This document shows positions 3,328 through 33,737 of a DNA stretch of 33,737 nucleotides, piece after piece (within the stretch, counting starts at the first letter, position 1; the number at the start of each line of letters is the position of its first letter). The notes beneath the pieces were generated by a model. The model saw only the letters and a program-made list of their open reading frames with translations. It did no database searches and was not told where the DNA came from. Location: positions 1 to 33,737 of the forward strand of contig JAQUKG010000006.1 in assembly GCA_028719245.1 (NCBI GenBank), in the 5' to 3' direction. Source of the stretch: Candidatus Altimarinota bacterium (GTDB taxonomy: Bacteria; Patescibacteriota; Gracilibacteria; BD1-5; UBA6164). The position numbers and the translations under genes are program-made.

Positions 3328-6459
<3,132 letters not shown>

Positions 6460-6567: not shown

Positions 6568-6960
6568 TTAAGCAGCTAATAATGATAAAACCCATTTAAC
6601 TATAGATCAAGCTAGAAATATAACAAGTAATCAAATTCATCATTGAATTAATATAGTTTTTCATTTTTTAACTTTATCTTCTTCACCTCAAGCAGTTAAT
6701 ATTTGAAATCATCCCCATAATGCATATCAAACAGCTATTAAATATAAGAATGTCATAACATAATTAACATATGTTTGTAAAGCTTCTGATAAAGGTTGAT
6801 CTTCTAATCAACCAGTAACTGTAGCAGCATTATCAACTCAGAAAGTAGCATCAGGAGCACTAGTAGTAGTAGATGTAGCAAAAACTTGAGAAACACCTAC
6901 TTGAACTAAAGATAACATTCAAACAGTAGAGTAAACAGATTTTTTTACTAAATTATTCAT
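6568..6960 (-). CDS. Type IV secretion pilin-like membrane protein (Mbov_0395/TrbC-VirB2-like)
   Basis: A 130-aa protein with an N-terminal signal-like segment (residues 1-29, ending near VFATS), a short Thr/Ser-rich linker and two hydrophobic helices (about 66-90 and 103-128). These are separated by a charged turn, LTAGGEEDKVKKGK. This arrangement, with a conserved Gly-rich turn and Lys residues between two helices, is typical of the small pilin-like proteins widespread in candidate phyla bacteria and mycoplasmas. It is monocistronic, with a near-consensus promoter and a strong terminator, suggesting high expression. A paralogue-like protein lies at 28297-28749. No other secretion genes are adjacent, so the role in a pilus or secretion channel is inferred. 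Confidence 0.75.
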
Positions 6961-10329: not shown

Positions 10330-12306
10330 TTATTTATTTTTAAAAGATTCTTCTAAATTACTAATAAATATTTTTTCATCAAATCATCATCAAATTAAGA
10401 AATTTTTTCATTCAAATTTTGTTTTCATAATATTATTAAAGCTAGTTTTTGACATTGTTCATTCATTAAACCAATAAGAATAATTTGGTTTTTCTAAAAA
10501 TCATAATTTATAAAAAGCAGTTGTTAAAATATTTAGATCAAAATCATTATTTAAAAATGTTGTGGAATTCATTTTTCAATCATCTATTTTTATTTGTCAT
10601 AATCAAGTTAAATTTGTATGACTATTTAAAATATTAACCATTCTTTTAAAATTATTTCAAAAATAACCAAATCATAATTTATCTATATATTCAATTTTAT
10701 CAGCAATTTCTAAAAATTTATTTATTCAATTTTCATTATTATCATATTTAAAATTATATCATAAAGCTCATTGAACAAAGATTTCTCAATCTTCATTTAC
10801 TTCAAAATTTCTATTTCAAATAGTTTGTTTAAAATTCTTTTCTCAATTTAATCATTCTAATCATCATTTTTCATTAATTTTTGCATTTAATCATAATTCA
10901 GATATTTGTTTTTGCATTTCTTTTTGTTTTCATCAAGGTTTTAATAAATCGATAGGATTTGGTTTATTTATGACTGATCAACTTAAAGTTGATAAATATA
11001 AAGGAATATTATCTTTAATAGGGTTTGTTAATAATTGCCTCACTCTAGCTTTTGTTTCAGGAGTAGTATTTGGATCAACTAATAATTTATTAACTTGTAT
11101 TTCTAATGATTTTTCTAAATTATTAGTATTTTCATTAGTAAAGTTTTGTATTTTTACTTTGTATCAAATAAATCTATTTTCATCTAATGACATAGTAAAA
11201 TAGTCTAAAAATTCAAGTAAATAATATTTATCACTAATATTAATAGTTTTTAAAATAACATTTAATTCATTATCAACAAAATGTTTGAATTTTTCTCAAG
11301 AATTATCTAAAGCAATTCATTCTAATTTTAGTTCTAAATTTTTATCTTTTATGTTACTTAATTGTATTATAATATCTTTTGAAACAAATTCAGGATTTAA
11401 ACAACTTTTAAAAATTTTTTCATCAGCATAAATCTTTTTTAAATTTGCCATATTTAGAATTAATGTCTTTTGACTTGGATCAAGATTATCTATAAAATCA
11501 ACTAATTCACCAACTTTTTTGTTATCTTTTAAATAATTTTTATATAAATTGTCTAAATTTTCTAAGTCTGTTGGAAATATGCTTGATAATTTTATCAAAT
11601 CTAACTCAATTATATTTTTAGAATCTGTAAAAAATTTAGATTCTTTTATGTCTTTTATGTGTTTTGGTAAATTAATTATTAAATTATTATCAACTGAATA
11701 TTTTAATATTTTTTCTTTATCTTTAAAATCACTATCTTCAATATATTTTATAGATTTTTCTAAGTCTCATAAAGTAGAAATTAACATATCTAAATTTCAT
11801 TGTATCAACTGTTTATTTACATTTAAAAGTTGTGAATCTTCAGAATTTTTATAATAATTTTCAAAATAATTAACTTTATCATTTATAAAAAGAAAGTTAT
11901 TTTTTGTATAAAGTAAAATACTTTCTTCATATTTTGGGTATTTTAAAATAAGGTCTTTTGTCATTTCTGAAATTTTATTTAAATTTTGTTTTCATTTTTC
12001 GTCAGTATATTTTGAAATATTTTTAACTGGATCATCTAAATATTCAGCAAAGGTAGTTATTAATGCTTTTACCAAATCAACTTTTGCTTTTATAGAAGCA
12101 GCTTTACTAAGTCATTTTTCATACTCGTCATCTATTATTGTATCTCTATTTTCTCAGTTAATTTTTCAATCACTTTCTGTAAAAATCTGTTTTTCTAATT
12201 GTCAAAGTTTAGCTAAAACATTATCCAAATCTTCTTGTGTTGGATTTTGAATTTCTCAAGAATTTAATGCTTGTGTTGGATTTAATAGTTCAGTTGATTC
12301 ATCCAT
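10330..12306 (-). CDS. Hypothetical protein, 658 aa
   Basis: Not recognised. It starts with a repeated NPTQ motif (LLNPTQ..., IQNPTQ...) and continues as a soluble, Lys/Asn/Ile-rich, mainly helical protein without a signal peptide or membrane segment. Two Trp/Gly-rich patches occur near the C-terminus (NEKGGLEGLNGEKNF and the final FLIGGGFDEK), with Gly largely from TGA. The start ATG at 12306 is 29 nt downstream of the previous stop and the frame is open throughout. Standard-code calling would break it into small pieces. It belongs to the run of large unknown genes and probably forms a unit with the 753-aa protein upstream. Confidence 0.8.
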
Positions 12307-12335: not shown

Positions 12336-14597
12336 CTAACTATTCTTTCAAAATAATCAAACTAAACTTTCTTGAAAAGTATATTGACTAAAAATATTCA
12401 GTCTATTTGGATCAAATTTATTTACGAAAGTTTCTTCTATTAAACTTTCTCAAAGATTATTTACATTTTCTTTTCATCAAACTATTCAAACACAATTAAT
12501 TTTTATAATTCATCATTTTAAATCATTAAAATTTGTAAAAGAATTTATATTTTTTCATACAGAAAGTAAAATAGCCTTTAAAAAAATCATAATTTCATTT
12601 GGATTCAGATAATCATTTCATACACTAAATTGAAATGTATATTTATTTGAAATAGCTTGGAAAATTTTTTCTCTATATTTTAAAAGTCAGTCTAAATTTA
12701 AATCTTTTAAAGTTTGTCCAAAATTTATTAAATTTTCTTTTGCTTTTTCACTTTTTGAGATTATTGCAAATTCCTTACCTGAAACCTCTAAATTTCATAA
12801 ACTTCATCAAGTTTTTATAATATATTCTCATCATCAAATTTTTCTATATTCCAATTCTCCTCAACTTGGATAAGTAATTGTTTGTATATTTGTATTTTGA
12901 TCTGTTTGTGTTTCTGAGATTCTATGATCTAACTTTTTTTGTTTTTCTGTTTCTTCTCCTTGAAGTTCTTCTTGCTTTTTTAGTTCTTCTTTTTGTTTTT
13001 CTAAAACTTCTAAATTTTTTCTTAAAATTTCATCTCTTTCAATTACACTTTTCAATATTTCTTTATAAATATTTTCTGCTTCTCTTCTTGATCTTCAAAT
13101 TTGAACTATATCATTTCAAGTCATTCAAGCACTAATTCTAGAAACTGAAGATAATTCTAGGGAACTAATTCTATTATGACTTATTCTGTTTTGTATTTCA
13201 TTAACTCTTTTTGTTAAAAAACTTATTTGGTTTGTATCATTACTTTGTTTAGCATTTTCTAAATATTTCTTTAAGTCTTTTAAAATAAATGTATCATTTG
13301 CAATTTCAAATCTAACTTTATTTTGTTTTCCATCAATTATACTTAAAACAGCTTCTTTAAAATTTGCAGGTGGAATATCTAATTTATTTTGTTTGTTAAA
13401 ATTTTCAATTTCCACACAAACTTTCCAAAATCAATAAACTGTTAAATTTGGTTCTACTCTCTTAATTAAATCATTAACCATTTTTTCAGCTTCTTTTTTA
13501 GAAATTCATCTTGAAATAAGAGGCTCTAAAAAGATTCTTTTAATATTATTATTATTTTCTTTAATATTCTTTTGGAACTCAAGTAAAAATTGCCCTTTTT
13601 CCTCTTGAGATAATTTATCAGTTTTTTTTAAATTATTTGAAAATTCTTGTGGATTTTTTGAAGCTGTTATAGAATTTAATAATGATTGCCAAGTTTCTTT
13701 TACTTTTTCAACTATGCTATCATATATTAATCCTAATTCAGAGAAATGAGAAAGAAAATTATAATCTTCTCTGTTCTTTTGTCTTGAAAAGAAAGTAAGT
13801 AATTCCTTTGCTTTATCTTTTCAAAAAGTTTTTATAAGGTAATCAGCTGTTAATCTATTATTTCATTTTAATGAATATAAATAACTAGTTAATTCCATTC
13901 TATTTAAAGATTGAAAATTAGTACAAGTTCTGATTTTGTTTTCTAATTCACTTACGGTAGTTATATAATTTCACTTTTCTTCATTAAATCATTTTAAATA
14001 ACCCTTATTATCATATAATTTATGTCAAACTCAAAATATTTTTTCTATTAATTTGTCTTGAAAAAGTCTAACTTCGTATCTATCATCCAATTCACCTATT
14101 GTGCTATGACTAAAAGTTACTAATTTATCAACTGTTGTATTTTCGTTATATCATGAAAGATATCTTTTGTTTAGATAAGCTAATACTGAAGATGCTTCTT
14201 CAAAAGAATATTCATTAATATTTTTGTCTCTTAACTTTTTTGTTTTTTCTTTAACATCTTGTGTATTAGTTCTTTTTCCAAAATCTCATATAATACTAAG
14301 AATTCATTTTTTTTCTATAACTCAATTGCTTTCAGCTAATACAATAACATCTAATAATTCTAATTTTATCCTTGTTCTTTCTCATACGGATATTTTTTTA
14401 TCACCTTTAATAGATTCTCTAATTGTTATTTTAAGTTCATCATACTCCTTTTGAAATTTTTTATATAATTCCTCATTTCAACTTTTTTTAACAGCTTTTA
14501 AAATTTCATATCACTCTTTTAACATACTCTGAACTTCATTATCTCATCATACTTGAGCTGATAATGTTTGATATTCTACTTCTTGTCCAATTTCCAT
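12336..14597 (-). CDS. Hypothetical protein, 753 aa, with coiled coil
   Basis: Not recognised. It is a soluble, charged, helical protein. A clear coiled coil of Glu/Lys/Gln heptads lies at about 510-560 (EVLEKQKEELKKQEELQG). After it, a Gly-rich, strand-like segment (YPSGGELEYRKIGGGEYIIKTGGSLG) suggests a small beta domain before a helical C-terminus. It has no signal peptide or membrane helix. It ends in TAG, 29 nt before the 658-aa gene. Similar size, composition and organisation suggest the two work together, possibly as intracellular or scaffold components, but no family is assigned. Confidence 0.8.
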
Positions 14598-14654
14598 AAA
14601 TTTTATGATAATTATAAATTTCTTTAATTTTACTATATTTTTAAATTTAATGCA

Positions 14655-14684
14655 AAAATAATCTCTATTTATAGAGATTATTTT
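14655..14684 (-). terminator. Palindromic hairpin overlapping the mtaB stop codon
   Basis: A perfect 14-bp inverted repeat (14655-14668 with 14671-14684) that contains the mtaB stop codon. On the minus strand it is followed by a mixed T-rich tract. It may end or attenuate mtaB transcription before the 753-aa gene. Confidence 0.55.
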
Positions 14685-15931
14685 AGTTTTCAAACAATTA
14701 TTTCATTTTTCTTTATAATTCAGGAAATTACCTCAAAATTATCGCTATTACATTCTATGTAATTTTCGCTCCATCATTTAAAATTTCAATCTTTTATACT
14801 TTCAATTAAAACATTTAAAGTTTTTCACTTTTGAGAAGTAATAAAATTATTTCTAACTTCTTCTCAAATAGAGTTTAATCTATCAACTCTATCTTTTTTA
14901 GTTTTTTCATCTATTTGATTTGAATAAAAACTAGCTGGGACAGATTCTCCAAAAGTATGATTTGAAAAAGGAAAACAATGAAGTTTTGTAATATTAAAAT
15001 TTTTAACTAAATCATAAGTTTGTATAAAATCGCTTTCTGTTTCTCAAGGAAATCAAACTATTAAATCAGATCAAATACTTATATTTACTCAATCTTCTCT
15101 TTTGATATTTAAAATTTTTTTAAGTAATTCTTTCATATATTCTCCATTATAATGTCTTCTCATTGATGCCAGAATATTAGAACTTCAAGATTGAATTGAT
15201 AAATGAAAATGTGGATAAATTCTTTTATTTTCAAATATTTTTAAAACTTTTTCATTTACAAATTCTGGTCAAAGTGAACTAATTCTAATTCTTGGAATTT
15301 CAGTTTTTTCTAAAATATATTTTAGTAGTTCATCAAATTTAGAATTTTTATAATCATTTGTATTTTCGCTTCACCAAGCTCAAAGGTTTATTCAAGTCAA
15401 AACTACTTCTTTTCAACCTTGCATTTCAAATTCTGTTATTTCATCTACAATATCTTCTAGACTTCTATAAAAATGTTTTCATCTTTTTATAACTGTTAAA
15501 CAAAAACTACAAAAACTATCACATCAACCTTGAATTACTAAAAACTTTTTTGTTGTTAAAGCTAGTTTTGGAAGTTTAACAATCCCTCCTAACCTCCCCT
15601 TATCAAAGGGAGAAATATTAGAGAAGTTTTGGGGTGATTCTCAAAGTATTTCTATTTGATTTTTAAATTCTTTTAATTCGTCATATATTTCAAAAAATTC
15701 TTTGTTTTCTGCTCATTTTTCAAAAGCTCAACATCAACTAATATATATTTTTTCATTTTCTTTTAAAATTTGCAATTCTTGTTTAACAAATTTTAGCCAT
15801 TTTTTCTTTGCTTTATCTGTTACAACACAACTAGCAACAAAAACCCCTAATTTATCTTTTAAATAAGGGGAATTTAACCATTCATCAGTATAATATTTAT
15901 TTACTTTACATCCAAAAACTTTGTATTTCAT
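14678..15931 (-). CDS. mtaB: tRNA t6A37 methylthiotransferase MtaB (radical SAM)
   Basis: Radical SAM enzyme that adds a methylthio group to t6A37 of ANN-decoding tRNAs. It has 417 aa. The N-terminal MTTase domain shows GCKVN at the start, SCVVTDKAKKK and a GCGAF cysteine motif. The radical SAM cluster is C137-x3-C141-x2-C144 (GGCDSFCSFC), with LTGINLGAWG and LIVGFPGET downstream, and a TRAM-like C-terminus. MtaB rather than MiaB is preferred because of GCKVN and the short N-terminus. The start is ATG at 15931; a TTG one codon earlier is possible. A higher-GC palindromic element is inserted in frame before the radical SAM domain. It is the only housekeeping gene inside the run of large unknown genes. 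Confidence 0.9.
15580..15646 (-). repeat. In-frame palindromic repeat element inside mtaB
   Basis: This stretch is visibly richer in G and C than its surroundings. It contains CTCCC...GGGGAG hairpin arms (15593-15613) and flanking CCCTCCT and ACCCC motifs. It encodes the peptide SPFDKGRLGGI in the linker between the MTTase and radical SAM domains. I recall very similar sequence (TTTGATAAGGGGAGGTTAGG) as dispersed repeats in other bacteria, comparable in behaviour to Rickettsia palindromic elements. The exact borders are estimates. Confidence 0.7.
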
Positions 15932-16004: not shown

Positions 16005-19000
16005 CTAGGAAACATAACTATTATAAGCTTCATCTAAAAAATCCATATACATTTTTTTATCTTCTGGTGTAATATTTTGTTTTCTTTCTCTAGCAACACT
16101 TATTCTATCATCTAAATATTTTTCTGCATATTTTCTTCACATAATATATAATCACATAACCTCTGCTAAATCTTCTGCATATTGAACTACATCTCATTTT
16201 CATTCATAAAACTCTCTTCAAGATATAAGACTTAATCAATTTCAACTTTCCTTTCTTAGTTGTCTATTCCTAGCTAATAATCTTTGTGCTATATGTCCGT
16301 CTTGATTAATTGTTGTATCATTACAAAAATTTAATGTAATTATATGTCATAATTCATGATTAAACTGTCTAATACTATCATTTGGTACTGGATTAATACC
16401 AGATATTTCATACAATCTCTTAATATCATCTGCATATTTATTTGGTCAAGATTTTACTCATATACATATAGCATTTGCTACTGTATGAGAATATCAAACA
16501 TTTGTTGTACTTGAAACCCAAATATTTCAATTTTTAGCATAAAATGCTGAAATTGCTCTTTTTGCACTTTTATTAGAAATAGAAGCTAATATAGATATAA
16601 TGTATGCTTTATGTTCTTGTCATCTTAAATAATTGCCATATCAAGGCCATTCACTTAAACGAGAATCTATTTCTTTTCATACTAATAAAGTTTTTAAAGC
16701 AACCTCAAATTCTCTATTAATTTTTTCTTGTTCTTCTAATTTATTAGGAATTTTATCCTCAAAATTTTCATATATATCAAATTTTCTTTCTCTCATTATA
16801 TTTGAAAAATAGTCAAAATCTAATATCTCTATTCTAGCATCGCTTGAAGAGCTTCTTAATGTCGTTCTCTTAATAATTTTATACTTAGATTTATTAATTC
16901 ACATAAAACTTAACATTCTAACAAAAAGTTTATTAGTCACTTCATAAGTTTTATCTAATATATCATTTTCACTTCATCAAGAAGTTTTTATCTCATTTAC
17001 TTGTTTTGAATACAATCTAACTTTTGTTAAATAATACCTATACAATAACGATAAATTTGATTCTAAGTTCTCTTTGTTAAATATCATATTTTGACTTTGT
17101 CATAAATCTTCAAGACTCATTTCATTAATCATCCTCATTAAATCCTCGTTTTCACTGGCATTATAATTTTTGTATTGGTTATGTAGTCAATCTCCTCTAT
17201 ATAAAGACATTATAGCTCTTCTAGGATTATCTATAGCATTTTTTCTTAAATCTCTTTTTATTTTCAATCATTGATTTTGAGTAATTCTTCTTATTCTATA
17301 GGCTAAATCTATATCTTCTCATATTTTTAGATCTGGATCAAATCATCAAGCAAAAGCATATAAGTCAGATCTATAAGATCAAGATCATACATTACTTCTT
17401 CATTTTGTATATAATCTATTTAATCAACTAGTCATTGTATACATAAAATGTAACAATGGTAATTTCTCAATAACTTCTTTTGGGTACCTAGATTCACTTT
17501 TATAAACTCATACATTATCATCATCTTCAAATTGCCTTATTACATGACTTAGAAAAAATCTATTTTTATCTAAAGCATCTGCTCATCAATTTCTTATTAT
17601 TAATACTCTTTCTTTTCAATTATCTCTTTTAACTTTCCTAAATAATGATAAGTCTGCCATTGTCTTATATATTAGCCCCATTGAAGGTCTTCATTCAAAA
17701 TTAAAAGTATGTTTTACCAAATTTACTTTAATCTCTGGATGTTCTCTTTTAAATCTTAGAATTTCATCTTCTGTTTTTTTATCAAATTCTATATTAGAAT
17801 TAGGACGATTTAAAAATACGTTTATTTCATAATAATTTGGATTAAGTCTTGTTCAATCATCATTTAATTGTTTAACTGAATATTCATATAATGTTTTATA
17901 AATATGTTCTCATTCTCTATATGCTGGTAGATTTATAGAAAATTTACAATCTTGATGTAAATCTGATATTTGAGAAGATAAATTAGATAATAATTTATGA
18001 TCTCATTTTAAACTAATATAAGCTAATTCAGTAGATATATTTTGATCCCCAACATCTTGACTCAAATTTACATAATCATTTTGTTTAGTATCATCATATA
18101 AATCATCATACATAAAAGTTTCTTTCTCATCTATAGGTATTTTAACAAACTGTCATACAGGAGTTTTAGATTTTGAATCTCTTATTTCATGATATCTATT
18201 TCATCCAAATGGTATTCCATACCAAGTATCAGTTCAAGGAACAGGAGTTGCTGGATCATAATATCATGCAGTTGTAGTTGTGATTTGATTAAATACTAAT
18301 TCTCAACTTCAATTTATTGTTTGCATTGGATTAATACTTATATCTCAACCATTTATATGAACTTCTCAAACTTCTATTTTATAAAAACTTTCACTACCAA
18401 AAGCATCTTGCAAACTTGGAGGAATTTGTATATTTCAAGCTCAATCAATTGGTAAAGGAATATATGGTCATCATTCATTAATCGTTAATACAGCTTGTAT
18501 TTTTCAACTAGTAAAATCTGTAGGTACAACATCTCAAAAATGATGTCAATTATAAAAAGGATTCTTTCACAAAAGTTTTGAAACATTCCATCATCATTTT
18601 CAATCAGTATGAAGATATTGTTCAGTATAATCAAAGTTTGGTGCAGGAGTTCAGTTATCATACCAATGAGGATGTTTTATACTAGTATAAGCAGTTAAAT
18701 CATCTGGATATTTCATAACCGTAACTGGCTCATGATATGCTCATTGAATATCTTGTCAAGGAGTGCTTCCATATCAAGCTAAATGTAATATTCCTCAAAC
18801 GGTTGCTCAAACTCAAGCTGAAACTAATGCAAAGTTTTTTCATTGTTTCCAAGCATAATCTCTTTCTTCTTTTCTACGAACATCAAATGCACCTATAGCT
18901 TTACTATCTATTTCTTTATATAAATCATAAATTATCTTATCTAATGGATCTTGTTGATTTGTTTCCCAAACTCTAGAATTAAATCTTGCTAGCAATCATG

Positions 19001-20420
19001 GATGAACTTGATTTAATAATGACAACATCTCAATATGTTGAGATGAAATAGATTTATCAGCATCGTATTGAAGCATATTTATATTTCTAGCACGACCAAC
19101 TTTATGTTTAACTAGGTAATATATTCAAGCTATTAAAGCATCTTCATCTTTAGGATTTGTTAATCAAACTGCAAGTCTATTGTACAAATCCATAGTTGAA
19201 TGTTGATGTTCATTTTTATGAGCCTCGTTTGATGATTCTCAGTCAACTGATTTATTTCAAGTTTCTAGTCACATAGCTCATCTACGATCTATTTGGGCAG
19301 TTCTATCTCTTAATTCTCTTTTAGCTCTTCCTCATGCTAAAACTCATCAAGTAGCAGATCATACTAAAATTGGTGCTACTAATCCTCACCAAGGTCATAA
19401 TGCAACTCATCATACTAAAAGTCAAGCAAAGCTACGAGTTCAAAATGCTGAAGCTAATGCAGCAAAATTTGGATGATATATAAATGAAGCCACCTTTTCT
19501 TTAAACCATTTACCTGGTATTTTATTTACTTTATCGCTTAACCAGTCTATCATTTTTACAACTGCTCATTCCTTTCTTTCTCAATTTCATTGTTCCATTC
19601 TACCAATATCAAAGATATTTAATCTAGCTTCAAATGTACTTAAATCTTTTAAAAGTCATGCTTTTTCCAATCTAGCAAAAGAAACATTTAGTTGTTCTAT
19701 ATCTGTTGTTATTTTTTGACTAGTTATCTTTTTATATTCTGAATCAATTATTTGTTTAACTGTTTTCATTTTTTCTTTACGAGCATCGCTTCCTTGAGGT
19801 AAACTCATCCATTCTGAAATAGCAGCATTTAAATGTTCATTTCATTTTAAAGATACTTTTCAATTATCTAATTGTTCATACTCAAGATATGTTTTATTTT
19901 CAATTCAAACACTAGAAGCCCTAGCTTGTTCTTCTAATTTAGCTTCTGTATATTTTCAATTTTGAAGTCATTGTTCAATTTCTTTTTTAATTCTTCTTTT
20001 TTCACTGTCTATCCAAGCATCTCTTCACATTCTTTTTATACTTCTAGATAAAAATCAAATAGTATTTCTTTTAAGCCAGCTTCATTCTTTTAATTTTCTC
20101 ATTTCTTCATCAAAGTTTTCCATAGCTTTATGTTCTGCACATATATCTATAACTCTTGATAAATCAAGCACATCCAAAGATACTACATTTGCAGTATTTT
20201 GTGTAGTAGTTTGAGAATCTTGCCCCAGTTCTTGAGTAAGTGGTTGAGTTTGTGAATTTCAAGATCTTTGCACAGGTCAAGGCATACACATAACTCTATC
20301 AACTTGCCCTTCAGTTTCTTGCACTTGTTTTCAGAATCAAAAATCTCTTTGCAATCAAACTCATTTTTTAAGTCCTTTTTGAGGTTCTTCTTGTGGTTTA
20401 CTTCCGAATCAAAATCTCAT
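16005..20420 (-). CDS. Giant membrane protein with glycosyltransferase-2-like and HELGH zincin-like domains
   Basis: 1471 aa; the frame was checked codon by codon with no TAA/TAG. Order: a Gln/Thr-rich N-terminus (1-110), a helical segment, a Gly/Ala-rich hydrophobic region (about 313-360), a second hydrophobic segment (about 528-548), and a Trp/Pro/Gly-rich beta region (about 550-800). A GT2-like domain follows at about 824-1060: FSINLPAYREGEHIYKTL, VLIIRNGGADALDKN, YRSDLYAFAGGFDPDL and GEDIDLAYRIRR (E1035). Then comes a helical region, and a C-terminal zincin-like domain with HELGH at 1355-1359 and EDLAEVMGLY with a possible Glu ligand at E1420. A canonical DxD is not obvious, so glycosyltransferase activity is uncertain. 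It lies 15 nt after the 99-aa gene. It is not a known family as a whole. Confidence 0.85.
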
Positions 20421-20435
20421 AATAATAAAATTAAA

Positions 20436-20735
20436 TTATAAATTATTTTTAAAATCTTCTAACCAAACATCAAAATATTTATCTACTTCCATATCATAGT
20501 TTGGAACTCTAGTAGATAAAAATTCATCAGCATCAAACATATCTGGATCAAACATAATTGCATCACGAAATAAGTTTTTATCTTCTCTAGATAGTAAATC
20601 TGCTGCTATATTTGTCAGCACATATTCTTCAGCACTAGCTAGAGTTTTATCTATTATTACATTTTCATCTATTCAAGGAAATGTAAGTCATGCTGTTTTG
20701 ATACAATCTTGTATCTTTTGTCTAAATATATCCAT
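20436..20735 (-). CDS. Small acidic hypothetical protein, 99 aa
   Basis: Not recognised. It is acidic and helical, rich in Asp/Glu, Leu and Phe (FDPDMFDADEFLSTRVPNYD), with no signal peptide or membrane segment. It lies between the 1035-aa and 1471-aa genes, 15 nt before the latter. Its size and charge suit a small cytoplasmic partner or chaperone-like subunit of a large neighbour, but that is inference only. The start ATG is at 20735. Confidence 0.75.
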
Positions 20736-20807: not shown

Positions 20808-23800
20808 TTAATCTTTAATTTTACTATCAATATATCATCACAATAAATATCATCACATAGTATATCATAAAAATTCAATAAAATCTGAGGCTGACAATTC
20901 ATCCTCCCATAAAATTCATCAAGTTGCTAAGGTTCATTTTATTGCTAATCCTTTATAACTTGACCATTTACTAAGTTCAGCAGTTCTATCTCAAAGCATA
21001 ACTAATTTTAATAACTCTCAAGAAGATTTAAAAAATCATTTTGTATTTTTAAATATATCAATTAATTCCAAAGCTGTTCTTCAAGGTGTAAGTGCTTCTG
21101 AATATAACCATGATATAACTTTTGTTATTTCATTTTTATTAGCAGGAGAATATTTAGAATTTTTTACATGTTCCTTAATTGTAGTTAATATTCATTTAGC
21201 TTCTTCTAAAGTTTTATTTGGAATAGGTTTATTTAACTCTACTCAAAATCATTTCATTATATTTGCAAAATTATTATCAGTAAAATTTTTTAATTCCTCT
21301 CAAACTAATTTAGTTGTTCAATCTGATTTTAATACAACTATATCAATTTCATTTCCAGTTTTTTCAAGTTTTACTACATGACCATCTAATGTAATTTTTT
21401 TTCAGATATTAGCCTCTTTTAATATTCAATTAAATTTTCAAGCTTCTTTTAATTCTTCACCTACTTTAGTAATATTTATATCTTTAATTATATCATCAAT
21501 ACTTCATCTTTTAATAGTTCAATCAGCTAACTTGATTTCATATTCAGGGCTTTTTCTAACTTTTCATATCATATTTCATGTATTTCTTATTTCTGCTCAT
21601 CAAATCATCTTAGTTTCTCAAGGTTTAATAGATTTTATAAATTGAGAAGAATATTGACTAAACATCTTATTTTCAGTCCTACTTAAAGCTCAAGCTCATT
21701 TTAATAATGATTCTCATCTATTAGCTATACCTTCAGAAACTCTTCAAGAAACACTAGCTAATCTTTGTAATTTTTCAGGAGCTAATTTTGAAATATATGT
21801 AGTTATTTTTCCAAGCCATTGAGTATGTTTTAGTCATGGGATAAGTCATACTGCAGCAGCAGCATTATCCCAGAAAGTTTTTTTACCTCATTCAAATCTA
21901 GGATCAACTACATGACTAAATTTTAATATATCCCAAAGTAAATCTTCATCTTGGTTTGCTAAATCTGCTACTGAATATCAAACTCATAACATTCATGATA
22001 CAACTATTCACCGAGGTCATGTAGCACTTGGAGCTAAAGTTATTCACATTAATCACATTAATCATCAAATGTATTCTAATGTATAATCAACTTTAGTTCA
22101 TTCTTTATAAATGTCTACTGCTCAGCTTCAATCTTGATGTTTTAAGACTCAGTCAAATTTTCAATTAATATAGCTTCATTCCCATATAAAAATTAATTTT
22201 CCATCTTGCCGTTGATTCATAACCGTTTGATTCGCATTAGATTCCATTCAATTATTCACCTTTCAGTTTTTATAATCTCATTTAAAATAATTTCAGTTTT
22301 CTAACTTAGTATATCAAGCTTTTTCTAATGTAGTAGTGTTTGTTGGTGCATTTTGAGATTGTGCTTGTGCTCAAGCTTGAGGTACTGTTCAAGCAACTCC
22401 ACCAGCGACAGCTGTTCATGGATTAGTTGTTCAGTTTGTTCAAACTGCATTTTGAGACTCAGCTGTTCTTTCTAAATAATCTTTTATGGTTTCACCTGGT
22501 TTATAGTTTCATATATTATCTTTTTTATTTTTCAATAATTCAGCAAATATATACTCATAATATTTTCTATTTTCTAAATTAAGAGTAATTCAAATACTTT
22601 TAAAAAATTTATTTATTTCTTTAAGATCTCATTTTTTAGTTTCAAATATATTTAAATTTTCAGCATCAAGTTTTAAAAATTTATCATTTTTAGATAATTC
22701 TCACCATAAATTAGAAACTTGGTTTTTATCAAGAGTTCAAGCATTTGATTCTAATAAAGTAGAAAATTTATTATAAATAGAGTTTTCATTTTCTCATCAT
22801 AAATGTGATGAAACTTCACTTGCTAAAATTCATGTAGCTCAAGGAACTGATGCTACAACTCATACTCAAGCTCATATTTTAGCTCATGATGAAAATTCTC
22901 ATCAAAATATAAATGATAAAAATCCTCAAATAATTGCCAATATAGCCGCACTTCAAAACATTCAATTATCAATAGAGTCTGTTAATAATCATATAGGATC
23001 ATTTTCAAGTTTAGTTTTTAATTGTGCTGCTTCATCACTTGATCTTACTCATAAAGCAATTTTTTTTGCATCTGATAAAGTATTTAGAGATCAAAATATT
23101 TTTCTAGATATTTCTCATAATTTAACTGAATATAATTTATAGTCTTCAAAAGCATTTTCGTTTATTCACTTTCTTTGGTTATAGTATATATCATCAAAAT
23201 AAGAAAGAATAAACTCTTTATCAGCTTGATTATCAAACATATTTTTATCTAAATGTCATCTCAATAATTTATAATCTTCTTCTGATTTAAATTTGAAATT
23301 TTTTAAATCAGTATCACTTGGTTTTTTATTTTGAGCTATACTTATATTATGTTTTAATAATAATCTTTTAACATACTCTGTAGTTGTAAGAGGTTCTTTA
23401 CTATCTTTGTTTTCTGTTAAAAATTTATCAACAACAGATGATCTATAAAGCAATGCTGTATGAATATCTTGTATAGATATTTTTCAACTTCTTATACGGG
23501 AATTAAACAATTCTTGATAATTTACAACTTCGTCTACTCAAGGTATTATAGTAGTTTTATCAACCAATGGTTTATTTCAAGGAGTAAAATTAATTTCATT
23601 TCATTTTATACTATCTATTTTTATTCATTTTTGATTTAGTCATGAAAAAATAATTCATAAAACAAACATCCTATCATTTTTATCAGCAATTGTATCTAAA
23701 CTATCTAAAGTTGATTTAATAAAATCATAAGATAGTTTTCAATTTTCTACATCTTTTTTCAGTTTGTCTAATAAAACTCTTCTTTTATCTGATACTTCAG

Positions 23801-23915
23801 CTGTTTCAGTTGCTTCTCTAGATCTTTCGGCTGGATTTATAATGGTAGTACTAATATCAGTATAAGTTAAATTACCAGATCAATATAATGGTTGTCTTTC
23901 TTGATTTTGAGTCAT
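20808..23915 (-). CDS. Large membrane protein with MORN-like repeats, 1035 aa
   Basis: Not recognised as a whole. The N-terminal 300 residues are soluble and helical. A Gly/Ala-rich hydrophobic stretch (about 318-368) reads as one or two membrane helices, with many Gly from TGA. After a helical part comes a low-complexity Ala/Gly/Gln/Thr linker (about 490-535). MORN-like motifs follow (LENGNYFKGDYKNGKVNNG and GEGSYINGKFDGVLKHQDG, about 537-590), then a second hydrophobic pair (about 605-640), a helical region and a hydrophobic C-terminus. It is the first gene of the minus-strand run, 72 nt before the 99-aa gene, behind a promoter shared back to back with ftsX. It is plausibly an envelope-anchored scaffold. 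Confidence 0.8.
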
Positions 23916-23948
23916 AATTTTTAATATTAAAATAATAAAATCACTCAA

Positions 23949-28296: not shown

Positions 28297-28749
28297 ATGT
28301 TTATTGAGACTGTATTTGCAATGCAAGCTGGTGATACAAATGGTACATCTGCTTTGTTTAGTTCTAAGATGGATATTTGAGATTTTCTTTTGTTTGCAAT
28401 TTCTATGATAGTTTTATTCGCTTGAATTTTCTCAATTTTATATATTTTATGGTGATGAGTTTTATTAATATTATCTTGATGAAAAGATGATAAAATTAAA
28501 CCAGCTATTAACTCTATAAGATATGCTTTGATTTGATTATGAGTTATAGTTTTGTCAATATTTGTTTTTCCAAAGATAGCATGACTTTTGTGACTTGATG
28601 TAACTAAATATTCATCTCCTGATAAAATATTTAAGGAAATAAAAATTTTGTGAGACAAAATATTTTGAACTAAATCCACAACAACTATAGATTCCAATTG
28701 AGATATAAAAAATGTTAATTCTCTACCAAATGATTTCTCTGATTTGTAG
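28297..28749 (+). CDS. Type IV secretion pilin-like membrane protein, second copy
   Basis: 150 aa. After a short N-terminus it has two hydrophobic helices (about 29-58 and 74-98) flanking the Gly-rich charged turn ILSGGKDDKIKPAINS. This is the same architecture as the protein at 6568-6960 (two helices around a GG-E/D-K turn) but with a longer C-terminal tail. The stop codon TAG lies within the left arm of a 36-bp inverted repeat, so the last codons are complementary to the def 3' end. It may be a pilin or membrane component of a type IV secretion-like system. No partner genes are adjacent. Confidence 0.72.
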
Positions 28750-32630: not shown

Positions 32631-33737
32631 TTATTTTATTACATTATATAAATTCTGAATTTCTTGATCTGAAAGTGCACGGTTGTAAATACGAACTTCG
32701 TCAATAGCTCAAGAAAAATAATCCCAATATCATCATCATATTTGTGTAGTATTATTTCAAGCAATATAACTTCAGGTTGCAGAAGAAACAATTACATTAT
32801 TTAAATACATATATGCTATTTGACTATTATATTTTATGACTAAATTATTCCATTTTTTCAATTGTAAGCCTCAAAGTAAATATAATACTAAATTTCCTCA
32901 TTCTTGAGTATCCCAAAATATAGGATATCAAGTACCTTCATTAATCCCAAATCTATATCAACTAGAAAGATATCAACCCTTTAATGACATTATTTCTTGT
33001 TTCCATCAATTTTTTGAGGTAAATGTATCTGGATTTAGCCATATTGAGATTGTAAAATTACCATTAGTTGTAAAATTTAAATTAGGCCCAGTAATTGTAA
33101 TATTATCGCTAATTCCATTAAATATTCTTGCATTTCATATTATGCCAGAAGATATAATGGTTCAATTTACAATTCAATCATTATGATATCAACTTAAATC
33201 TTTTAGTTTTCCATCGCTAGTTCTTGTTTCCATATCCCAATATCATACAAGTGAATTATCTAAATTTGATAGTTCTTTATTATTTACACTCATAGCTGTT
33301 AATACTTGATTTCAGCTTCAGGTTAATATTCAACTTGATGAGTTTGAAAATACTGTTTTATATGTAGTTCAACTATTTGTTGTTAGTAAATCTATATTTG
33401 TTCAACTTTCTTGAATTGGATTATTATTTGTATCAAGTATTACTCATAAACTATTTCATAATACACTTGGTACTCTTAGTGTATTATCAGTAGCATATAC
33501 TTCTTGGATTATTAGATTATATGATAATGGATTTCATTCTAGTAGTGTTAATAATTCATACTTTGTATTATTTAAATTTGTTAGATATGTGTATCTAGTT
33601 TTATCTAATGGATCTAGTGGTATTTGATTCATATTTATTATTCTTGTAGCATTATCTCAAAAATATCATTGAGTTGCTATAATACTACAGCTTGCTACGC
33701 TCTTTATTCAGCTTTCTGTTTGTGGGTATAATCATGT
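32631..33737 (-). CDS. LamG-domain surface protein, pilin-like upstream part; 5' end outside window
   Basis: The last 368 residues of a protein that continues beyond the right edge. The visible N-terminal portion (QIPLDPLDKTRYTYLTNL, KYELLTLLEGN) resembles the C-terminal region of type IV pilin-like or pseudopilin proteins of candidate phyla bacteria. It is followed by Ser/Thr/Asn-rich repeats. A concanavalin A-like/LamG domain then runs from LVGYWDMETRTSDGKLKDLSG to the terminal AIDEVRIYNRALSDQEIQNLY, which is the classic ending of this fold. It is likely an extracellular carbohydrate- or surface-binding adhesin displayed on a pilus. The signal or prepilin segment cannot be checked. Stop TAA, 22 nt before the CIRCE-like hairpin. 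Confidence 0.85.

What the first reader, a model, noticed from the sequence alone, without database searches (positions are those of the whole stretch)
16005..20420. 1471-aa protein joining GT2-like and zincin-like domains behind membrane segments
One polypeptide carries two Gly-rich hydrophobic regions, a Trp-rich beta region, a GT2-like core (INLPAYREGEHI, AGGFDPDLKIGEDIDLAYRIRR), and a C-terminal HELGH with EDLAE 61 residues later, fitting a gluzincin Glu ligand. I know of no described family with this combination. It could be a self-contained envelope glycosylation and processing machine, or a toxin-like host-contact effector.
Basis: partly seen in the sequence, partly recalled or inferred. 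Interest (0 to 1): 0.8.

Follow-up and report, generated by a model that had tools for sequence, protein, structure and literature searches.

The report
Membrane-anchored glycosyltransferase with added protease-like tail
A giant protein of an ultra-small bacterium (Gracilibacteria) ties a sugar-transferring enzyme module to a membrane anchor that recurs, next to the same small partner gene, across the Patescibacteria, and in this lineage alone it also carries a tail that looks like a zinc protease.

Summary
All named motifs are present. The GT2-like core is confirmed. AlphaFold2 gives a confident GT-A fold (VIA-align Z 18.8 to a solved glycosyltransferase), and a relative with the same layout passes Pfam's GT2 cut-offs. 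The N-terminal half plus GT is not unique. It is a patchily distributed, apparently undescribed Patescibacteria family: helical N-terminus, Gly-rich hairpin, ~160 aa, one TM, 'WYDN-T' beta domain, C-terminal GT. A small DUF5663-like gene lies beside it in every locus examined with the N-half; close relatives also exist with the GT split off or missing. What is unique in the ~730 Patescibacteria genomes searched is the C-terminal HELGH…EDLAE domain. Its motif is far from chance and its codons match housekeeping genes, but it has no relatives, so the zincin fold could not be tested. The GT active site is unusual: DDGS is replaced by NxPN throughout, and the first Asp of DxD became Gly/Ala in every code-25 member aligned. 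Best reading: an accessory membrane-tethered glycosyltransferase of the cell surface with a lineage-specific putative protease. Orientation, activity and target are unproven.

The parts
16005..20420 (-). 1471-aa protein: N-terminal half + GT-A module + HELGH domain (genetic code 25)
20199..20420 (-). residues 1-74, low-complexity N-terminus, no signal peptide apparent
18141..20198 (-). residues 75-760, conserved N-terminal half (helical, Gly-rich hairpin, TM, beta domain)
19323..19469 (-). residues 318-366, Gly-rich hydrophobic hairpin
   Evidence: conserved
18756..18836 (-). residues 529-555, Gly-rich transmembrane segment, K/R before it and none after in close homologues
18141..18698 (-). 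residues 575-760, beta-rich WYDN-T domain shared with standard-code Patescibacteria
   Evidence: hhalign E 2.6e-12
16761..17963 (-). residues 820-1220, divergent GT2-like GT-A glycosyltransferase module
17577..17588 (-). residues 945-948 GGAD, DxD-like site (codons TGA TGA GCA GAT); D948 invariant
17313..17318 (-). residues E1035-D1036, putative catalytic acidic pair (ED motif)
16005..16850 (-). residues 1191-1471, orphan C-terminal domain with zincin-like motif
16344..16358 (-). HELGH, residues 1355-1359
16161..16175 (-). EDLAE, residues 1416-1420, candidate third zinc ligand
20436..20735 (-). 99-aa DUF5663-like partner gene, 15 nt upstream of the 1471-aa ORF

Best explanation
This is a membrane-anchored, accessory glycosyltransferase. 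The helical N-terminus (1-317) and the 366-528 segment lie in the cytosol, where the small DUF5663-like protein probably binds. A Gly-rich hairpin (318-366) and one TM (529-555) anchor the chain. A beta domain and linker carry a GT-A module (820-1220) that transfers a sugar to a glycan or protein at the cell surface or at contact with another cell. In this lineage a further ~280-aa domain with a complete gluzincin-type motif (HELGH + E1416) was added, most simply to cleave a protein in the same place. Shown: the ORF and code, the family and its layout, the DUF5663 linkage, the GT-A fold, the HELGH domain being lineage-specific. Inferred: membrane topology, side of the membrane, catalysis, targets, and that HELGH is a working protease.
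For: GT-A fold: pLDDT 70-95 over most of model residues 35-430; VIA Z 18.8 to 6p61, about 16-19 to WrtF, TarP, TarS, SpsA; Foldseek E 2e-8. Relative G403 (same layout) passes Pfam cut-offs for Glyco_tranf_2_3 and Glycos_transf_2. D948, N871 and G915 invariant and E1035 nearly so down to ~20% identity. Same layout in G111 and in standard-code Patescibacteria G403, G373, G360. DUF5663-like gene at every locus with the N-half: window, G032, G058, G111, G298, G299, G291. In G298, G299, G291, G070 it is the only copy above cut-off in the genome; G076 has two matches, one beside each of its two GT genes. K/R before the TM and few or none after it. Pro-rich linkers follow the beta domain in G058 and G299; PG_binding_1 repeats precede GT in G298: both hint at an outside location. 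Lineage-specific HELGH: absent from 353 class genomes and without real relatives among 380 phylum genomes.
Against: GT2 enzymes need nucleotide sugars, which are cytosolic; the stand-alone GT homologues (G114, G003, G052, G270, G297) show no obvious signal peptide, and the one scanned (G114) has no TM, so the module may face the cytosol. DDGS is replaced by NxPN family-wide and DxD position 1 is Gly/Ala in code-25 members, so activity is not assured. No polysaccharide gene cluster lies around the window gene. The N-half structure model failed (pLDDT 33), so topology rests on hydrophobicity and charge only.
Confidence: 0.4

Rival explanations
1. Cytosol-facing envelope enzyme: the GT module stays inside, uses an ordinary NDP-sugar and adds sugars to a lipid- or protein-linked acceptor at the inner face of the membrane; the anchor only localises it.
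For: GT2 biochemistry; stand-alone GT homologues without apparent export signals; in G298 an ordinary GT2-like gene lies next to the GT gene; a gene that looks by eye like a flippase lies near one copy in G076.
Against: Charge bias puts the region after the TM outside in close homologues; patchy presence (14 of 353 class genomes) argues against a housekeeping role.
Confidence: 0.25
2. Delivered effector: the Gly-rich segments and a DUF5663 'chaperone' help pass the chain into a partner cell, where GT and zincin modify host proteins.
For: Chaperone-sized partner linked to the N-half; variable C-terminal tails in relatives; GT module elsewhere joined to a protein kinase; host-attached lifestyle with giant surface proteins in the related Vampirococcus (PMC8080830).
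Against: No known export domain; no small immunity-like gene downstream (a methylthiotransferase-like gene follows); the GT is one conserved family, not a swapped cargo set; HELGH is seen once.
Confidence: 0.15
3. Degenerate GT used as a binding or scaffold module: the GT-A fold no longer transfers sugars.
For: DDGS lost family-wide; DxD first Asp lost in all code-25 members aligned; the residue at catalytic D1036 is Glu in several.
Against: D948 invariant and E1035 conserved at ~20% identity; standard-code members keep DAD.
Confidence: 0.2

Closest known systems
GT2-type GT-A glycosyltransferases (PF00535/PF13641; e.g. 6p61, WrtF, TarP, TarS, SpsA, PcManGT)
   Same: GT-A fold over ~180-210 residues at 2.4-3.4 A; xAD metal site; GG…ED motif; relative G403 passes Pfam cut-offs
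   Different: NxPN in place of DDGS; Gly/Ala at DxD position 1 in code-25 members; 11-18% identity; fused behind a membrane anchor and beta domain
DUF5663 (PF18908)
   Same: The partner gene is a relative (blastp 2.7e-4 to a PF18908 hit; common profile); PF18908 hits in G298, G299, G291, G070, G076 are linked to the same loci
   Different: The window's own copy is below Pfam's threshold; no paper held mentions DUF5663
Gluzincin metallopeptidases with HExxH…ExxAE
   Same: HELGH and Glu 61 residues later, both in predicted (low-confidence) helices
   Different: No significant profile or sequence match; fold not testable without relatives
Giant membrane proteins of Vampirococcus and Gracilibacteria (PMC8080830, PMC6851277)
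   Same: Giant proteins inferred to be in the membrane or outside the cell of related, probably host-dependent bacteria
   Different: The passages read describe adhesion, protease-inhibitor and toxin-like domains, not this anchor-GT layout

Membership tests
GT2 / GT-A glycosyltransferase | GT-A fold | tested here: met
   (Z 18.8, rmsd 2.4 over 182 residues)
GT2 / GT-A glycosyltransferase | Profile match to PF00535/PF13641 | tested here: inconclusive
   window protein: none, weak NCBIfam hits; homologue G403 above both Pfam cut-offs
GT2 / GT-A glycosyltransferase | DxD metal/nucleotide site | tested here: inconclusive
   D948 (third position) invariant; first position is Gly, Asp in standard-code members
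GT2 / GT-A glycosyltransferase | N-terminal DDGS nucleotide motif | tested here: not met
   NRPN; the first N is invariant in the family; hence filed as GT2-like with a GT-A fold, not as a canonical GT2 member
GT2 / GT-A glycosyltransferase | ED catalytic acid pair | tested here: met
   E1035-D1036; E is replaced by D in two and D by E in several of 13 homologues
GT2 / GT-A glycosyltransferase | Sugar transfer activity | not testable with these tools
   needs biochemistry
Gluzincin metallopeptidase | HExxH with downstream Glu ligand | tested here: met
   HELGH 1355, E1416; 2.5e-5 by shuffling
Gluzincin metallopeptidase | Zincin fold | tested here: inconclusive
   model mostly below pLDDT 50 in this region, no relatives
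Gluzincin metallopeptidase | Family profile match | tested here: inconclusive
   no Pfam match and no meaningful PDB match; one sub-threshold NCBIfam match, archaemetzincin E 0.08
Polymorphic toxin | Immunity gene directly downstream | tested here: not met
   next gene is a 418-aa radical SAM protein; the small gene is upstream and tracks the N-half
Patescibacteria DUF5663-anchor-GT layout (defined here) | Hairpin + TM + WYDN-T beta domain + GT with adjacent DUF5663-like gene | tested here: met

The most novel reading that the evidence does not exclude
A Patescibacteria-specific contact system: DUF5663 assembles a giant anchor protein that displays or delivers a glycosyltransferase (here with a zinc protease) acting on a partner cell.
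Probability: 0.2. Interest if true: 0.8.

Novelty: new variant of a known kind. Interest (0 to 1): 0.5.

Why it matters
Patescibacteria live on other cells by means that are largely unknown. This analysis turns an isolated oddity into a testable gene pair, DUF5663 plus a membrane-anchored GT-A protein, found from Gracilibacteria to distant Patescibacteria. It gives a domain of unknown function a genomic context (no paper in the held library mentions DUF5663) and points to defined active-site residues to test. The added HELGH domain would be a rare case of a glycosyltransferase and a putative metalloprotease in one chain.

Tried and rejected
Plus-strand or table-11 reading: no gene. First idea that the window fused two separate genes: dropped after the same layout turned up in standard-code Patescibacteria; fused is more likely the old state, the split in G298 (964 + 902 aa) and the losses in G032 and G058 later, though no tree was built. 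HELGH relatives: none in 353 class genomes. Weak phylum hits (E 0.003-0.08): five loci were looked at and no HExxH was seen in the frames printed. The one phage hit (E 0.7) lies in a 418-aa protein without HExxH; none in plasmids or viral contigs. Pfam, NCBIfam, PHROGs and PADLOC gave nothing significant for the window protein. PDB profile search of the GT alignment: nothing. Structure of the N-half: pLDDT 33, not used. A LysM-like stretch seen by eye in the giant protein of L120 was not called by Pfam and is not used. L035/L036 giant proteins share the hairpin-TM topology but no detectable sequence similarity to the N-half. The G298 E-value is by construction, since its sequence was in the query; the independent evidence is (E 2e-4; E 8e-17 to the standard-code members). 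Assembly chimera: against it, one frame, homogeneous codon usage and the same N-half+GT joint in G111.

Full report
1. What is there. The stretch 16005-20420 holds no gene under the standard code. The code is right: UvrA, LeuRS, ClpB and EF-Tu in the window need it, and TGA makes up 47-95% of Gly codons in the window genes checked. The source is a Gracilibacteria-type genome: the nearest named relatives are Candidatus Gracilibacteria. Its assembly is 1.35 Mb in 113 contigs.

2. Domain layout. Residues 75-760 form a conserved N-terminal half with a Gly-rich hydrophobic hairpin (318-366), one TM (529-555) and a beta-rich region (575-760). Residues 820-1220 are a GT2-like module. Residues 1191-1471 carry HELGH (1355) and EDLAE (1416). 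Codon usage is uniform along the gene apart from the short N-terminus.

3. The GT module. An alignment of the window protein with relatives from Gracilibacteria, Peregrinibacteria, an unnamed bacterium and a Nanoarchaeia contig gave a model with pLDDT 70-95 over most of residues 35-430. Foldseek and VIA-align place it among GT-A enzymes (E 2e-8; Z 18.8 to 6p61, about 16-19 to WrtF, TarP, TarS, SpsA). A relative with the same layout (G403) passes Pfam's cut-offs for PF13641 and PF00535. Motifs: N871 (in NRPN, where DDGS is expected) and D948 are invariant in 13 sequences; E1035 is E in all but two. The first Asp of DxD is kept in the standard-code members (DAD) but is Gly or Ala in all code-25 members aligned; in the window that Gly is a TGA codon. 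The genome has one copy; 14 of 353 class genomes have the module.

4. The wider family. Relatives of the N-half: G032 (940 aa) and G058 (1080 aa) with other C-termini, and G111 with N-half and GT in one frame. The GT of G111 runs to a contig end; a second contig carries the rest and its frame stops without a HELGH domain (that the two contigs adjoin is an inference). Further relatives are G298 (964 aa, with the GT in the next gene, 902 aa), G299 (2163 aa) and G291 (1781 aa). Starting from the partner gene instead, 20 DUF5663 loci from a sample of 126 Patescibacteria genomes were read: three lie near giant proteins that end in the GT module, in G403 (1244 aa, GT E 1e-64, gene 13 nt away), G373 (1558 aa, E 1e-86, about 1.5 kb away) and G360 (1344 aa, E 2.5e-25, 7 nt away). 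Profile comparison links their beta domain to the window's (E 2.6e-12) and their whole N-terminal part to G298 (E 8e-17). Eleven of the 20 fetched loci hold a DUF5663-type gene with a same-strand neighbour of at least 700 aa within 600 nt.

5. The partner gene. A 99-aa DUF5663-like gene lies 15 nt upstream of the window ORF. A member lies at the N-half gene in all seven loci (in G298 the GT gene and another gene lie between). It is the only copy above cut-off in G298, G299, G291 and G070, and two matches (one below the cut-off) go with the two GT loci in G076. Linkage this tight is not expected by chance, so a working partnership is likely; what it does is unknown.

6. The HELGH domain. The motif pair is improbable by chance (2.5e-5 per shuffle). 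No relatives were found in 353 class genomes, and weak hits in 380 phylum genomes did not hold up where checked. It is therefore taken as a lineage-specific addition, and the zincin fold remains unproven.

7. Orientation. K/R residues precede the TM and few or none follow it in close homologues; Pro-rich linkers follow the beta domain in G058 and G299, and PG_binding_1 repeats precede the GT in G298. These hint that the GT lies outside. Against this, stand-alone GT relatives show no apparent export signal and GT2 enzymes use cytosolic donors (established knowledge). This is the main unresolved point.

8. Verdict. The most likely role is an accessory, membrane-tethered glycosyltransferase acting at the surface or at contact with another cell.

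Noticed in passing
window 3328-6459 (-): LeuRS has a NUDIX domain inserted after its editing domain (PF00293 E 4e-10) and is cut into two ORFs by an in-frame TAA at 4381-4383; the same frame continues with the conserved KRETNTMPQW.
   Followed up: partly
window 6568-6960 (-) and 28297-28749 (+): Two type IV secretion pilin-like genes flank the region (PF18895; the second just under the Pfam cut-off).
   Followed up: no
window 20808-23948, 12336-14693, 10330-12306 (-): Three more giant proteins of unknown family on the same strand around the 1471-aa gene; the first has Gly-rich hydrophobic segments and, by eye, MORN-like repeats.
   Followed up: no
L040 5087-12433: Tandem copies of the GT module (90% identical), one at the end of a 1576-aa protein, the other fused to a protein kinase domain.
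   Followed up: partly
L047 7314-10688: A Nanoarchaeia contig encodes an 1124-aa protein with the GT module and, by eye, an APH-like kinase at its C-terminus.
   Followed up: no
L107, L114 and L103-L106, L108: Many DUF5663 genes lie in what look by eye like nusA-infB and def-fmt neighbourhoods, some with a giant hairpin-TM protein inserted beside them.
   Followed up: partly
window 32631-33632 (-): Laminin_G_3 (ConA-like lectin) domain protein.
   Followed up: no
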